Below, one piece after another: positions 22,460 through 27,859 of a DNA stretch of 32,673 nt (position 1 is its first letter; each line of letters starts with the position of its first letter). Under the pieces are notes generated by a model. The model had not been told where the DNA came from. It saw only the letters and a program-made list of their open reading frames with translations, and ran no database searches. The DNA is from Pseudomonadota bacterium (GTDB lineage: Bacteria; Pseudomonadota; Gammaproteobacteria; Pseudomonadales; Moraxellaceae), in assembly GCA_021804485.1 (NCBI GenBank), contig JAJZHM010000013.1, positions 1-32,673 on the forward strand, in the 5' to 3' direction. The translations under genes were made by a program, and so were the position numbers.

Positions 22460-24121
22460 ATGTCCTTTGTGTCCTTCTCCGAATCAAAAAAAAGCCTTAG
22501 GCTTCTTTTACAGTGGCGAGTAACAGCCATTACCGTACTGCTTGGAATTCTGGCTCTTGGCATAGGTTTTCGTGTCGTCTATCAGCATTCACGCGAGGCC
22601 TCTTTTGCTGAGATCGATCAGAACTTTCTGGCGATTCGAGACACCGCCTCGATTGCTGTTTATACTAAAAACAAGGTTCTGGCTGATGAAGCGGTTCATG
22701 TTCTTATTAATAATCCATTGATTTGTAATGCTAAAATTCAAGATGATCAAGATGTCTTCAGACGAATTGCCTTAAAAAGCGAACATTGCAGTCAGCAGAA
22801 GCTCTATAAAGTCCCCTCACCTTTTGCCTCTGATCAACAGATCGGTCAGATTCAAGTAGGAATTAATCAGTCTCTTGTTGAGGACCGTGCACTTCGAACT
22901 GCCCGCCTCATTTCAATTATGATGCTGCTAGTTTTGCTTGGCTCCAGTGTTTCACTGGCACTTGCCAGTCAATCGCTATTGACTCGCCCCCTCACGGAAC
23001 TTGCTCATACCATTCATTCGCTCAAGCCAGGTACATCGCTGCGCCTGCACGTCCCCAAAGTGCATGATGCCACTGAGCTTGGAGCACTGGTTTCAGACAT
23101 CAACCGCCTGCTCAAAACGGTTGAAGATACCTTACAGGAAGAGCGTACTCTTCGAACCTTTATTCACGCGCTGCAACAGCAGTATCAGTCGATCTTCGAC
23201 CAGGCTCGTACCGGTATTGCTTTAATTGATGAGACCGGACGATGCATGCTGGCGAACCCGGCGTTTGCACAGATGCTCTATCTGGATTTTCATCCTGAAG
23301 GTCCGTTCTGTATGCCCCCCCAATGGCTAAACAAATATTTCAATTCAGAAAGTCCCTTGGTTTCGCTCATGGAGCGTGCACGAAGCAGCATGGAAATCCA
23401 TTCAAAGGACATCGCCTTAAAATCATCAGATGATGATCCCATCTGGCTTAATGTGTCTGTTTCAACCCATATCACGGAGGACCCATCTATTCATGCTTTG
23501 ACACCTTACCGTATGCTTGAATGTATTCTTATCGACATATCAGAACGCAAGCGTGAAGAGGAAGAACATCGTTTCAAGGCCAAGCATGATCAATTGACGG
23601 GTTTAATGAACCGTGCGGGTGGTGAGACAGCCATTCTTGATCACCTGCGCAGTCACCTTGAACCACCTCGTGGTGCCATTTTGGTCATGGATCTGGATCG
23701 ATTTAAGGAAATCAACGATACCTATGGCCATGCCTTGGGTGATGTTGTTCTTATTAAAACAGCTGAACGTCTTAAAGAAGTGCTGCGCTCTATTGACGTT
23801 GTCGCCCGAATGGGGGGCGATGAATTTCTAATCGGCCTGTTTCACATGGATGCCATCAGTGCCATTCCCGTGATTCTTGATCGACTCCTCGCCTCTCTGA
23901 CATCGCCTATCAAGCTCAATGATGGAATCGAAGATTGGGTGGGTGCATCCATCGGTGTCTGTGTGATTCCTGAATCTGATTCTTATGAACTGGCAACCTT
24001 GCTCAAATTGGCTGATGAAGCAATGTACCGGGTCAAACGCGCCGGAAAATGTGGGTACTGCATTCATAATCATTCCTCATATTCAGAGGTTTATCTCTAT
24101 CAGAGGAATAATCACCATTAA
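22460..24121 (+). CDS. membrane diguanylate cyclase: periplasmic sensor-HAMP-PAS-GGDEF
   Basis: Makes cyclic di-GMP from two GTP at the cytoplasmic membrane. Order (553 residues from the ATG at 22460): TM1 (about 19-40, ITVLLGILALGIGFRVVY), a periplasmic region of about 100 residues resembling CHASE8-type sensors (SFAEIDQNFLAIRDTASIAVYTKNKVLADEAVHVL), TM2 (about 150-172), HAMP (about 173-225), a PAS domain (about 240-365, YQSIFDQARTGIALIDETGRC) and GGDEF. The active-site motif is intact (MGGDEF), and RSID five residues before it is a canonical inhibitory-site RxxD. A TTG start at 22403 with AGGA upstream would add 19 residues; no strong ribosome site decides. The porin gene follows after one base, so the two are likely one transcript. 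The periplasmic part presumably receives an envelope signal. Confidence 0.9.
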   Translation: MSFVSFSESKKSLRLLLQWRVTAITVLLGILALGIGFRVVYQHSREASFAEIDQNFLAIRDTASIAVYTKNKVLADEAVHVLINNPLICNAKIQDDQDVFRRIALKSEHCSQQKLYKVPSPFASDQQIGQIQVGINQSLVEDRALRTARLISIMMLLVLLGSSVSLALASQSLLTRPLTELAHTIHSLKPGTSLRLHVPKVHDATELGALVSDINRLLKTVEDTLQEERTLRTFIHALQQQYQSIFDQARTGIALIDETGRCMLANPAFAQMLYLDFHPEGPFCMPPQWLNKYFNSESPLVSLMERARSSMEIHSKDIALKSSDDDPIWLNVSVSTHITEDPSIHALTPYRMLECILIDISERKREEEEHRFKAKHDQLTGLMNRAGGETAILDHLRSHLEPPRGAILVMDLDRFKEINDTYGHALGDVVLIKTAERLKEVLRSIDVVARMGGDEFLIGLFHMDAISAIPVILDRLLASLTSPIKLNDGIEDWVGASIGVCVIPESDSYELATLLKLADEAMYRVKRAGKCGYCIHNHSSYSEVYLYQRNNHH

Positions 24122-24122
24122 A

Positions 24123-25433
24123 ATGGACTTTTTTTGTAAACTCTACAGCATTTTATTGCTCACAATGCTGACGAATACAAGCTCATGGGCTGATGATTTT
24201 CTTCCTGCTTCTGTAAGTATTCATGGATTTTCAACGCTGGGTGTCGCCTGGCTCAATCAGCCCGGCGTTGTTTTGCAACGTGATTTGGGCAATCAACTGG
24301 GTATCACGCAAAAAGGCAACCCTTTGGATGCCGACTCGCGCCTAGGCCTTCAAGTCAACTGGCAGATCAATCCCCATTGGTCGACAACGGTCCAGGCGGT
24401 TGATGCTCCTCGTGTTGTGCAGAATGCCAACAACGTCTTTCCTTGGGCTTTTATAAAATATCAGGTCAGTAATGACATCTATCTGCGTGCAGGCAGGATT
24501 GGAGTTTATTCCTTTGCCTTGTCTGACCAGCGTAATGTCGGTTATGTGTATCCTTGGGTACGTCCTCCTGAAGAGTTTTATGGATTTATGCCCATGTACT
24601 CGATGACTGGAGTTGATTCAGGGTGGCATCATGATTTTGATCTTGACCGGAGTATTGATGTACGTGCATTTCTTGCCCGCTCTGAATCCGACTATTCATC
24701 GGCTTCGGGAACAGGAACGGAATCATTTACTTTAAAATTATCCCCCTTGCTGGGGGGCAATATCGTTGTGAATCTGGGCAACCTCATAGCCCGCCTTTCC
24801 TACGTAACGACAAAAATTGACTCGACCTTTCCTGGACTTGATTCGGTCGTGCAACTCTCCCAACAACTTCTGCCGGTATACCCTACGCTGGCTGAACTGC
24901 CAGGAGCAGCCGATTTCTACAATACACGCATGTCTTTTTATGACGCCAGTATGAACTATGATAATGGGCATATCATGGCGCTGGCAGAAGTAGCCTATAC
25001 CGATTTCCAGAGCCATTTTAAACCAAGTATGGAAACAGGCTATCTGACGCTTGGTTACCATTGCTCCTCCAAGATTTTGCCTTACCTGACCTACTCGCGT
25101 GTTCGACCTGCACGCAGTACCTTTCAGATCAGCCCAAGTGCCATGCCTGCGGGCATGGACTACCTGCCTGCCAAAATATCTGCGGCCTATGCAGAAGGAG
25201 CCTCTATCCAAAATATTTTCAATGCATATTATTTTGCCGCGCTACAAGAGAATCAGCAGACTTTAAGTTTTGGTGTACGCTGGGACTTTTATCCACGCAT
25301 GGATCTTAAAGCCCAGATCGATCGCACCCGGGTCTTTAGTGGTGGATATCTGCTCTGGCAAATACCTTCAAACAGCACTATTGATCCATCCGGAGTTACG
25401 ATTTGGTCCTTGGCATGGGATACGGTGTTCTGA
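24123..25433 (+). CDS. outer-membrane porin, copy 1 of a duplicated porin/binding-protein module
   Basis: A 436-residue protein with a signal peptide (MDFFCKLYSILLLTMLTNTSSWA, cut before DDFLP) and a beta-barrel text rich in Tyr/Trp/Asn turns. Blocks include VSIHGFSTLGVAWLNQPGVV, DSRLGLQVNWQINPHWSTTV, AFIKYQVSNDIYLRAGRIG and YPWVRPPEEFYGFMPMYSMTG. It ends WSLAWDTVF with the terminal Phe typical of barrel proteins recognised by the BAM complex. The general type is a trimeric-porin-like barrel of unknown substrate. The ATG is one base after the diguanylate cyclase stop, with a GAGGAA some 15 bases upstream. The binding-protein-like gene begins three bases after the stop. A close paralogue follows at 25998. 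Confidence 0.85.
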   Translation: MDFFCKLYSILLLTMLTNTSSWADDFLPASVSIHGFSTLGVAWLNQPGVVLQRDLGNQLGITQKGNPLDADSRLGLQVNWQINPHWSTTVQAVDAPRVVQNANNVFPWAFIKYQVSNDIYLRAGRIGVYSFALSDQRNVGYVYPWVRPPEEFYGFMPMYSMTGVDSGWHHDFDLDRSIDVRAFLARSESDYSSASGTGTESFTLKLSPLLGGNIVVNLGNLIARLSYVTTKIDSTFPGLDSVVQLSQQLLPVYPTLAELPGAADFYNTRMSFYDASMNYDNGHIMALAEVAYTDFQSHFKPSMETGYLTLGYHCSSKILPYLTYSRVRPARSTFQISPSAMPAGMDYLPAKISAAYAEGASIQNIFNAYYFAALQENQQTLSFGVRWDFYPRMDLKAQIDRTRVFSGGYLLWQIPSNSTIDPSGVTIWSLAWDTVF

Positions 25434-25435
25434 TC

Positions 25436-25891
25436 ATGAAAACATCCATCCTTAATCGCCTGCTCCTAACCTTCATGTCCTCATTAATTCTATTCAGTTC
25501 AGCGCAACCCACTCATCATGACCTTGTCGTTATTGTCAACGCACACAGCCCCTTGTCACATCTCAGCCGTGATGAAATTGCCCAGATCTATACCGCACGC
25601 ATAAGTCTTCTGGCTGATGGAACTCGTCCAGTCGCCCTTGATCTGCAGAATAATCCGGATGTTCGGTATCAATTCTACGCGGACCTCCTGCATACCAGTC
25701 CGGAACGGTTTGATGCGTTTTGGGCTCGCCTGCTCTTTACGGGCTTAGCAACACCACCTAAGCGACTTAATCAAGAAGCTACAGTTATGGAGCAAGTCCT
25801 GCAGAATGATCATGCGATCGGTTTTGTCACCGATGACTTTGCTCATTCCGATCGGTTGCACATTCTCATGCGCTGGCCAATCACCCATTAA
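25436..25891 (+). CDS. small periplasmic binding-protein-like (PstS-type fold) protein, copy 1
   Basis: A 151-residue exported protein. The signal peptide is about 24 residues (MKTSILNRLLLTFMSSLILF...). It is followed by VIVNAHSPLSHLSRDEIAQIYTARISLLADGTRPVALDLQ and, near the end, VLQNDHAIGFVTDD. These match the small proteins annotated 'phosphate ABC transporter substrate-binding protein' or PBP-like domain; at 150 residues they are less than half of true PstS, and no ABC transporter genes are here. The ATG sits in TGATCATG right after the porin stop, implying translational coupling. It may bind a ligand entering through the porin and report to the cyclase periplasmic domain; this is inference. 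Confidence 0.8.
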   Translation: MKTSILNRLLLTFMSSLILFSSAQPTHHDLVVIVNAHSPLSHLSRDEIAQIYTARISLLADGTRPVALDLQNNPDVRYQFYADLLHTSPERFDAFWARLLFTGLATPPKRLNQEATVMEQVLQNDHAIGFVTDDFAHSDRLHILMRWPITH

Positions 25892-25997
25892 TACCGCCGA
25901 TCGATTTAAGCTCGGCATGAACTCAAAACACAATTGTGATTTAGAAGCACTGGCATCTATCAAAATCTGAACTAGAATTTGTTCAGTTGAAATTACT

Positions 25998-27395
25998 GTG
26001 TATTTGCTCTGGCTCATGATTTTTTTATTAACGCATTTATTACAAGTTCTTAAAAATCACGCTGAACGCCAGCAGCGATTTCGTTTTCTGTCGCTTGTCC
26101 TGTTTTGTTTTGTTTTTCCAAGTTCTTGGGCTGACTCACTCTTGCCTGATTCGTTGAGTATTCACGGATTTTCAACGCTGGGTACGGCATGGCTTAATGA
26201 GCCGGGTGTTGTTCTTGAGCGTGATTTAGGGAATCAACTGGGAATTTCCCAAAAAGGTAACCCTTTGGATGCCGATTCGCGACTGGGTATTCAGGCTGAC
26301 TGGCAGATCAATGCACGTTGGTCCACCACGATTCAGGCCGTTGAAGCTCCTCGTGTTGTCCAGAACGCCAATAATGCAATCCCTTGGGCTTTTGTGAAAT
26401 ACCAGATTAACAATGACACCTACCTGCGCGCTGGACGTATGGGTGTTTATGCATTTGCTCTTTCAGACCAACGCAATGTTGGCTACGTCTACCCTTGGGT
26501 CCGCCCGCCGGAAGAGTTTTACGGATTTATGCCGATTTACTCAATGACCGGTGTGGATTCAGGCTGGCACCATGATTTTAATTTTGAACGAAGCATTGAT
26601 GTTCGCGCATTTGTTGCCCGCTCGGATTCAAGCTATTTTTTGCCCGACTCAGTCACGGGAACCGATTCATTTACCCTGAAGTTATCTCCCTTGCTGGGAA
26701 GTACCATTGTCATGAATCAGGGGAATCTTACAGCACGCCTCGCCTATATGACCATGAAAGTCGGCTCGACGTTCCCAGGTTTGGAATCGGTGCTTCAGCA
26801 ATCTCAGCAGGTTGTCCCTGTGTACCCCTCCTTGGCAGGCCTGCCCGGACAAGCCGATATTCTTAATTCACGGGTATCCTTTTATGACAGCAGCATGAAC
26901 TATGATAATGGGCATATCATGTTTATGGCGGAAGCGGCCTATACGGATTTCCAAAGTCACTTCAAGCCAAGCATGGAAACCGGGTATCTAACCATTGGTT
27001 ATCACGTCTCACCCAAAGTTTTGCCTTATCTGACCTACGCACGTGTTCGACCTGCACGCAGTACCTTCTTTGTCAATTCAAGTGCTCCACCCGCTGGACT
27101 GGCTTATTTACCTCCTTCATCACCACTGCGTCCCCAAGCAACTGCTGCCTATGCTGAAGGATCTTATCTGAAGAATGCCTTTAACTCATACTATTTTGGC
27201 GTACTCCAGGAAAATCAGCAGACTTTAAGTCTTGGTGTACGTTGGGACTTTTATCCACGCATGGATCTTAAAGCCCAGGTTGATCGTACGCGGGTCTTTG
27301 ATGGGGGATATCAACTTTGGCAAATACCTGCGAACAGTTTCGTTGACCCCTCGGGTGTGACGGTCTGGTCGTTGGCATGGGATACGGTGTTTTGA
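25998..27395 (+). CDS. outer-membrane porin, copy 2 of the duplicated module
   Basis: A paralogue of the porin at 24123-25433, with the same blocks (LSIHGFSTLGTAWLNEPGVV, AFVKYQINNDTYLRAGRMG, YPWVRPPEEFYGFMPIYSMTG) and the same ending WSLAWDTVF. The signal sequence is unusual: the hydrophobic core FLSLVLFCFVFPSSWA before DSLLPD is preceded by a long N-region containing HAERQQRFR. The start is therefore uncertain: GTG at 25998 (465 residues) or ATG at 26016 (459), neither with a clear ribosome site. The 106-base gap after copy 1 of the binding protein holds no strong terminator, so transcription may read through from the cyclase. The substrate is unknown. Confidence 0.83.
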   Translation: MYLLWLMIFLLTHLLQVLKNHAERQQRFRFLSLVLFCFVFPSSWADSLLPDSLSIHGFSTLGTAWLNEPGVVLERDLGNQLGISQKGNPLDADSRLGIQADWQINARWSTTIQAVEAPRVVQNANNAIPWAFVKYQINNDTYLRAGRMGVYAFALSDQRNVGYVYPWVRPPEEFYGFMPIYSMTGVDSGWHHDFNFERSIDVRAFVARSDSSYFLPDSVTGTDSFTLKLSPLLGSTIVMNQGNLTARLAYMTMKVGSTFPGLESVLQQSQQVVPVYPSLAGLPGQADILNSRVSFYDSSMNYDNGHIMFMAEAAYTDFQSHFKPSMETGYLTIGYHVSPKVLPYLTYARVRPARSTFFVNSSAPPAGLAYLPPSSPLRPQATAAYAEGSYLKNAFNSYYFGVLQENQQTLSLGVRWDFYPRMDLKAQVDRTRVFDGGYQLWQIPANSFVDPSGVTVWSLAWDTVF

Positions 27396-27397
27396 TC

Positions 27398-27859
27398 ATG
27401 AAAACATCCATCCTAAACCGCCTGCTGAATGTTTTGATCCTGACTTGGATGCTCACATTGGTTCTGTTCAGTAATGCAGAACCGGAACATCATGATATCG
27501 TGGTCATTGTCAACGCCCACAGCCCATTAACACATCTCAGTCGTGATGAGATTGCTCAAGTCTATACTGCACGCATGAGTCTGCTCGCTGATGGAACACG
27601 CCCCGTTGCCCTTGACCTGCAGAATAATCCCAATATACGCAATCACTTCTACGCTAATCTTCTCCATACAAGCTCAGAACGATTTGATGCTTTTTGGGCG
27701 CGCCTGCTCTTCACAGGACTAGCCACACCACCCAAGCTTCTGAGCAGCCAAGACCAGGTCGTCAATGAAGTACTGCAGAATGACCACGCTATTGGTTTTG
27801 TAACCGATGACCACGTTAAATCGCCGAACATCCATGTACTGGCGCGCTGGCCGCAATAA
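27398..27859 (+). CDS. small periplasmic binding-protein-like (PstS-type fold) protein, copy 2
   Basis: A 153-residue exported paralogue of the protein at 25436-25891. It starts with the same MKTSILNRLL and has VIVNAHSPLTHLSRDEIAQVYTARMSLLADGTRP, LDLQNNPNIRNHFYANLLHT, FDAFWARLLFTGLATPPK and NDHAIGFVTDD. The ATG lies in the same TGATCATG context after the porin stop. Differences from copy 1 cluster after TPPK and at the C-terminus (HVKSPNIHVLARWPQ versus FAHSDRLHILMRWPITH), which might change partner or ligand. No dedicated ABC transporter components are nearby. Confidence 0.8.
   Translation: MKTSILNRLLNVLILTWMLTLVLFSNAEPEHHDIVVIVNAHSPLTHLSRDEIAQVYTARMSLLADGTRPVALDLQNNPNIRNHFYANLLHTSSERFDAFWARLLFTGLATPPKLLSSQDQVVNEVLQNDHAIGFVTDDHVKSPNIHVLARWPQ

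What the first reader, a model, noticed from the sequence alone, without database searches (positions are those of the whole stretch)
22460..27859. Diguanylate cyclase followed by two porin + mini-binding-protein modules: possible envelope-to-c-di-GMP sensing unit
Seen: a periplasmic-sensor/HAMP/PAS/GGDEF cyclase with intact active and inhibitory sites, then porin-PBP-porin-PBP, all one direction, with gaps of 1 and 3 bases and 2 bases within modules. Known: YfiR-type periplasmic proteins can control the CHASE8-type cyclase YfiN; the small PBP-like proteins have no ABC partner here. Inference: the porin admits a ligand, the binding protein senses it and sets cyclase activity. Duplication with divergence near the binding-protein C-terminus suggests two ligands or two affinities.
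Basis: partly seen in the sequence, partly recalled or inferred. Interest (0 to 1): 0.62.

Follow-up and report, generated by a model that had tools for sequence, protein, structure and literature searches.

The report
VpvABC-type biofilm-signal sensing operon, doubled
This stretch encodes a known kind of three-part envelope sensor, an outer-membrane pore, a small periplasmic protein and an enzyme that makes the biofilm messenger c-di-GMP, here in an unusual gene order with the first two parts duplicated.

Summary
One co-directional block (22460-27859) encodes a HAMP-PAS-GGDEF cyclase and two porin plus mini-binding-protein pairs. The linkage is conserved: 12 of 12 strong cyclase relatives outside the family sit beside porin and binding protein, as do 21 of 29 Vibrio-genus loci examined, in several gene orders. 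The system is of the VpvABC type of Vibrio cholerae. The window is a new variant of a known kind: order C-A-B-A-B, with a tandemly duplicated A-B pair under purifying selection. Two further points: the binding protein is a single PstS-type lobe, not a two-lobed clamshell; and the cyclase's periplasmic domain is distantly CHASE8-like, the type in YfiN, whose partner YfiR is also a single lobe. The same sensor domain also carries kinase or GGDEF-EAL outputs beside the same pair. Ligand, sign of control and complex formation remain untested; the phosphate/anion and two-ligand ideas have no support.

The parts
22460..24121 (+). VpvC-type diguanylate cyclase: TM, periplasmic CHASE8-like domain (about residues 47-137), TM, HAMP, PAS, GGDEF with I-site RSID
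24123..25433 (+). VpvA-type porin, copy 1
25436..25891 (+). VpvB-type single-lobe periplasmic binding protein, copy 1
25892..26015 (+). 124-base gap between the two modules; one weak promoter-like match at 25950-25978, with promoter-like matches at chance level in the region
26016..27395 (+). VpvA-type porin, copy 2 (ATG 26016)
27398..27859 (+). VpvB-type single-lobe periplasmic binding protein, copy 2

Best explanation
The block is a VpvABC-type three-part envelope-to-c-di-GMP sensor in order C-A-B-A'-B'. Shown: the domains, the homologies, the conserved linkage, the correlated divergence of the three proteins, and a tandem duplication under purifying selection. Inferred: the porin (VpvA) lets a small molecule into the periplasm, or itself reports on the outer membrane. 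The single-lobe binding protein (VpvB) binds that molecule, or docks unliganded, on the CHASE8-like periplasmic domain of the cyclase (VpvC). The change passes through TM2, HAMP and PAS and alters GGDEF dimer activity. By analogy with V. cholerae, the net effect of A and B is probably to raise c-di-GMP. The two A-B copies probably serve the one cyclase.
For: Linkage: 12 of 12 strong sensor-domain hits outside the family lie beside porin and PBP, against 0 of 17 fetched weaker hits, of 59 listed. Other class-level hits: 6 of 9. Named loci: 68 of 80 with a same-strand sensor and 3 of 80 with an opposite-strand one (biased set). Vibrio: 21 of 29 loci examined, of 35 matches in 29 of 118 genomes; Trp at residue 240 in five of them (L228, L235, L240, L242, L243), the position of the published VpvC W240R. 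Order varies (62 ABC, 3 BAC, 1 ABABC, 2 in which only B-C met the distance rule and the porin follows C), yet the genes stay together. All three kinds of window protein match the named trios (e.g. Undibacterium pigrum DGC E=4e-67, porin 7e-44, PBP 1e-24). Distance matrices of the three proteins correlate over 43 trios (r 0.57-0.70; 0 of 2000 permutations as high each). dN/dS between the copies is 0.10 and 0.115. Published model.
Against: No binding, expression or activity data for this organism. Many porin-PBP pairs have no VpvC-type protein beside them: 17 of 20 loci fetched for porin or PBP hits (some on short contigs), 10 of 10 further loci, and a clade of 27 PBPs with none linked. G436 has the sensor domain (E=6.8e-42) without partners. 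The own genome has a second VpvC with no partner in the 13 kb fetched (G000:C55). In one V. cholerae strain deletion of vpvABC changed neither c-di-GMP nor phase variation. Correlated divergence may partly reflect species history and joint transfer. No complex was modelled.
Confidence: 0.72

Rival explanations
1. Porin and binding protein are a solute-capture or uptake pair that happens to share a transcript with the cyclase; the cyclase senses its signal directly.
For: Porin-PBP pairs without a cyclase are common (74 of 90 PBP matches have a porin nearby; 27-member clade with no linked sensor). Trebino et al. also report vpvAB without vpvC. A second VpvC in G000 stands alone.
Against: Sensor-linked PBPs cluster on the tree (8 label changes against a shuffled mean of 28.8). 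The sensor domain recurs with kinase or GGDEF-EAL outputs beside the same pair. Gene order is permuted while adjacency persists. A single lobe cannot form a clamshell, and no ABC partner was seen in the flanking genes scanned.
Confidence: 0.15
2. VpvB is a YfiR-like repressor lobe: it holds the cyclase off and is released by the porin or by an envelope signal, as YfiB releases YfiR from YfiN.
For: Single-lobe fold in both (YfiR fold from PMC4655355, passages). The VpvC periplasmic domain is distantly CHASE8-like (hhalign 77.7%, E=1.9e-5).
Against: No sequence relation between VpvB and YfiR (hhalign probability 0.06%). The outer-membrane part is a porin, not an OmpA-like lipoprotein. In V. [quoted passage not shown]
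Confidence: 0.2
3. The second module is a decaying duplicate with no role.
For: The two window PBPs are sisters and the trio of congener G001 has one pair, so the duplication may be recent.
Against: Both copies are open and under purifying selection (dN/dS 0.10 and 0.115, with near-saturated pS). A separate tandem duplication exists in G284 (L080, the same contig as L147).
Confidence: 0.1

Closest known systems
VpvABC of Vibrio cholerae (vpvC is VC2454; VC2452 and VC2453 for the others recalled)
   Same: Porin, periplasmic binding protein and membrane diguanylate cyclase in one operon, with HAMP then GGDEF. Five Vibrio-genus relatives of the window cyclase carry Trp240, the W240R site.
   Different: Order is C-A-B-A-B instead of A-B-C, the A-B pair is duplicated, and a PAS domain sits between HAMP and GGDEF (published V. 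cholerae VpvC: HAMP 174-228, GGDEF 230-411; PMC12051071, passages).
YfiBNR (TpbB) of Pseudomonas aeruginosa
   Same: Outer-membrane part, periplasmic part with the fold of one PBP lobe, and a cyclase with a CHASE8 (recalled) / HAMP / GGDEF layout.
   Different: YfiR is DUF4154 and VpvB is a PstS-type lobe with no sequence relation. YfiB is an OmpA-like lipoprotein, not a porin.
NspS-MbaA of Vibrio cholerae
   Same: A periplasmic binding protein controls a membrane c-di-GMP enzyme (start of the abstract of PMC5646818 in the listing; the enzyme part recalled).
   Different: NspS is a full two-lobed polyamine binder and has no known porin partner (both recalled); the window PBP is one lobe.
PstS phosphate-binding proteins
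   Same: Fold of one lobe (VIA Z 12.9 to 4gd5, rmsd 2.2, 110 residues).
   Different: The other lobe is missing, and no ABC transporter was seen in the flanking genes scanned.

Membership tests
VpvABC-type system | Porin, binding protein and VpvC-type cyclase genes adjacent on one strand (any order) | tested here: met
   the order itself varies among relatives
VpvABC-type system | All three proteins homologous to those of trios in Grimontia, Shewanella and Undibacterium, genera for which the paper reports vpvABC | tested here: met
   BLASTP of the window proteins against L159, L190, L208; genera named
VpvABC-type system | Direct homology to the V. cholerae VpvA, VpvB and VpvC sequences | tested here: inconclusive
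   No named V. cholerae record was compared. Proxy: 21 of 29 Vibrio-genus loci examined are trios, five with Trp at residue 240 counted from the first start codon
VpvABC-type system | GGDEF cyclase with intact active motif and HAMP after the second TM | tested here: met
   (HAMP below Pfam cut-off: 18.7 of 25 bits)
VpvABC-type system | A and B influence c-di-GMP output | not testable with these tools
   Reported for V. cholerae only
YfiBNR | YfiR / DUF4154 periplasmic protein | tested here: not met
   DUF4154 not among the families matched by 20 mini-PBPs; hhalign probability 0.06%; no DUF4154 match in G000 at E<=0.001
YfiBNR | CHASE8 periplasmic domain in the cyclase | tested here: inconclusive
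   No CHASE8 match in G000 at E<=0.001; 2 of 16 relatives match, best E=4.3e-4; hhalign 77.7%, E=1.9e-5
YfiBNR | OmpA-like lipoprotein YfiB | tested here: not met
   No OmpA-like Pfam match to either window porin at E<=0.1
PstS / ABC phosphate binding protein | Two-lobed binding protein | tested here: not met
   151 aa precursor, one lobe aligned to PstS

The most novel reading that the evidence does not exclude
VpvABC and YfiBNR are two versions of one design: a CHASE8-like periplasmic domain gated by a single binding-protein lobe, the lobe having been recruited twice from different binding-protein families and tied to an outer-membrane partner. The porin-plus-lobe cassette is a plug-in sensor for several outputs (GGDEF, GGDEF-EAL, histidine kinase), and the window doubles the cassette on one cyclase.
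Probability: 0.4. Interest if true: 0.6.

Novelty: new variant of a known kind. Interest (0 to 1): 0.35.

Why it matters
The comparative data here find the module in several proteobacterial lineages and in Desulfuromonas. They show that it survives changes of gene order and of output domain. They also suggest a concrete structural idea: a lone PstS-type lobe docking on a CHASE8-like sensor, parallel to YfiR on YfiN. That gives a direct experiment for what VpvB does.

Tried and rejected
Phosphate sensing by a PstS-like site: S-G-T (recalled as part of the PstS site) is absent from 89 of 90 binding proteins; in L031 it lies at the start of the mature part, not at the aligned place. Phosphate sensing is therefore not claimed, but another site is not excluded. 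A Gly-Ser difference between linked and solo PBPs was looked for and was not clean (12 of 27 against 14 of 63 rows); dropped. Homology of VpvB with YfiR: no signal. Riboswitch or other Rfam RNA in the window: none at gathering score. Promoter-like sites at chance level (10 against 9.8), terminator-like sites somewhat above (10 against 5.9, sd 2.8). Foldseek of the whole cyclase showed PAS/GGDEF and other multidomain signalling matches in the 50 rows printed, so the periplasmic fold was not tested that way. YfiR was not among the 50 rows; that excludes nothing. Paper searches: the listings already held PMC12456836, which I did not recognise there. VpvABC came to me by recall, then. For the single-lobe nature of VpvB, one search found only two papers holding VpvB with cholerae; I saw passages of both and no mention of it there. 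Subscription journals, including the 2007 source paper (Beyhan and Yildiz), were not seen.

Weak points: the cut between 'strong' and 'weaker' hits was set after seeing the gap (7e-23 to 3.4e-17), and only 17 of 59 weaker rows were fetched. The named-locus set was seeded with sensor-linked PBPs and keeps the best 80 of 445, so 68 of 80 is not a frequency in nature. HK and EAL labels rest on short motifs. In L131 the cyclase is cut by the contig end, and in L135 the PBP is read as two ORFs; both were counted as trios. pS of about 0.65 makes dS rough. On the tree, window_27377 is labelled unlinked only because of my 2.5-kb rule. Residue 240 is counted from the first start codon. The PDB sequence match of 4q8r is 5.4e-7 for the whole sequence, but its best single stretch has only 0.0025. 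hhalign at 77.7% on one pair is suggestive, not proof.
Full report
What is there. The window is a whole contig of the genome G000. Five + strand genes lie between minus-strand neighbours: a diguanylate cyclase (22460-24121), porin (24123-25433), mini binding protein (25436-25891), second porin (26016-27395) and second mini binding protein (27398-27859). Gaps are 1, 2, 124 and 2 bases. The cyclase has GGDEF (E=2.6e-39), PAS and a sub-threshold HAMP; GGDEF is preceded by the RxxD site. Neither porin has a Pfam or NCBIfam match over a curated cut-off. Of five porins from related trios scanned, one passes Porin_4 (Undibacterium, E=2.4e-9) and one matches it weakly.

The binding protein is one lobe. 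The AlphaFold2 model of copy 1 has mean pLDDT 90. Best matches are PstS-type phosphate binders: Foldseek 1twy E=1e-5; VIA-align 4gd5 Z 12.9, rmsd 2.2 A, 110 aligned of 243 residues. Sequence profiles agree (4q8r E=5.4e-7 for the whole sequence; best single stretch 0.0025). A 151-residue precursor that covers one lobe cannot be a clamshell binder by itself.

Linkage. A profile of the cyclase's periplasmic/HAMP half (A1) was run on 293 genomes of the order, giving 73 matches. Besides two in G000, 12 are strong (E<=7e-23), and all 12 lie beside porin and binding protein. Of the 59 weaker matches 17 were fetched and 0 of 17 have the partners. In 369 genomes of the class there were nine further matches: six with partners (one of them with the cyclase cut by the contig end, one with the binding protein read as two ORFs), one strong histidine-kinase match (G436) without, and two weak ones without. 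Three relatives found through their porins (G001, G004, G019) also have the trio. Among 80 named loci retrieved with sensor-linked binding proteins (best 80 of 445, so biased), 78 have the porin next to the binding protein, 68 a same-strand sensor protein, 3 one on the other strand and 9 none. The trios include Enterovibrio, Grimontia, Vibrio, Shewanella, Pseudoalteromonas, Nitrosomonas, Undibacterium, Methylomonas, Desulfuromonas and a Magnetococcales MAG. Orders are 62 A-B-C, 3 B-A-C, 1 A-B-A-B-C, and 2 in which only B-C met the distance rule and the porin follows the cyclase. No C-A-B order is in that set; the window and its congener G001 have it.

Pairs without a cyclase are the commoner state near the window's genome: 17 of 20 loci fetched for porin or binding-protein hits (some contigs are short) and 10 of 10 further ones lack a VpvC-type gene beside them. 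In 20 genomes, 74 of 90 binding-protein matches have a porin match on the same strand within 1.2 kb.

Outputs vary. Of the 68 same-strand sensors, 59 carry GGDEF, one GGDEF plus EAL, three a kinase motif, and five are cut or unassigned (motif-based for EAL and kinase). At class level L132 is GGDEF-EAL, and L135 and L136 carry a kinase motif.

Identity of the system. PMC12456836 (passages, first part of the discussion and one methods section read) describes VpvABC of V. cholerae as a predicted three-component module. [quoted passage not shown] The paper reports vpvABC in Grimontia, Halopseudomonas, Shewanella, Undibacterium and Aquincola, and vpvAB alone more widely. Three of those genera are in my list. 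In 118 Vibrio-genus genomes, 29 have a match, 35 matches in all. Of 29 loci examined, 21 are trios and 8 are not. In 16 of the 21 the cyclase has 409-430 residues. Five have Trp at residue 240 counted from the first start codon, the site of the published W240R. I did not compare a named V. cholerae sequence.

Trees. Of 90 binding proteins (53 labelled linked), 27 form a clade with no linked sensor (99/84), and the window copies lie outside it with linked ones. Linked labels need 8 changes against a shuffled mean of 28.8 (0 of 500 as low). Sensor and binding-protein trees agree on several groups, for example window genus + G004/G019 + Methylomonas and one unnamed proteobacterium (98/96, 98/90). 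Distances of the three proteins correlate over 43 trios (r=0.70, 0.57, 0.64; 0 of 2000 permutations each). Species history and joint transfer contribute to this.

The own genome. G000 has seven binding-protein and six porin matches. Four of the binding proteins fall outside the solo clade (the two window copies, C27 and C173). A second VpvC (C55) has no partner within the 13 kb fetched and groups with those of G004/G019 (96/78). The C173 binding protein has no porin beside it, groups with theirs (91/78), and sits beside a gene whose product is 80-81% identical to the one next to their trios. This looks like a second trio that was split; function in trans is possible but untested.

The duplication. 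The two window binding proteins are sisters (99/96). Identity is 327/434 and 114/149; dN/dS is 0.10 and 0.115 with near-saturated pS. A second, separate tandem duplication is in G284.

Parallel with YfiBNR. YfiR's fold is that of one lobe of a binding protein (PMC4655355, passages). The VpvC periplasmic profile matches a CHASE8 profile over 74 columns (hhalign 77.7%, E=1.9e-5); two unrelated comparisons gave 0.1% and 0.9%. VpvB and YfiR show no sequence relation (0.06%). So the two systems look alike in design. By the tests run, the window is not a YfiBNR member.

What is not shown. No ligand, no sign of control, no complex, no transcript. Against a strong role, the paper says VpvA and VpvB matter less than VpvC. 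PMC8754643 (passages) reports no change of c-di-GMP or phase variation on deleting vpvABC in one strain, though mutating a VpsT site in its promoter lowered c-di-GMP by 40%.

Noticed in passing
G000:C55 (L078:5023-6660) and G000:C173 (L028:7268-7882): A second VpvC and a lone VpvB in the same genome appear to be the separated remains of a trio kept together in G004 and G019.
   Followed up: partly
L109:4764-12667: A solo-clade PBP and porin lie beside a response-regulator GGDEF-EAL protein and a hybrid histidine kinase on the same strand (read by eye), a different sensor neighbour.
   Followed up: partly
L189, L203, L238, L241, L242: The porin gene next to the cyclase is read as two ORFs in these loci (V. 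mytili, Paraglaciecola MAG, three Vibrio-genus genomes); broken genes or assembly errors.
   Followed up: no
L265:6789-8905: Congener G001 carries a CHASE8 cyclase next to a DUF4154 (YfiR-like) gene, while G000 has neither DUF4154 nor CHASE8 matches.
   Followed up: partly
window:19120-20394: Outer-membrane protein with an Alginate_exp match (E=4.8e-7); it was not among the porin-family matches of G000.
   Followed up: no
window:20581-21849: 422-aa minus-strand ORF upstream of the cyclase with no Pfam or NCBIfam match at E<=0.1.
   Followed up: no
window cyclase residues 89 and 110: Two cysteines in the periplasmic domain, invariant in the four members of alignment A1; a possible disulfide.
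   Followed up: no
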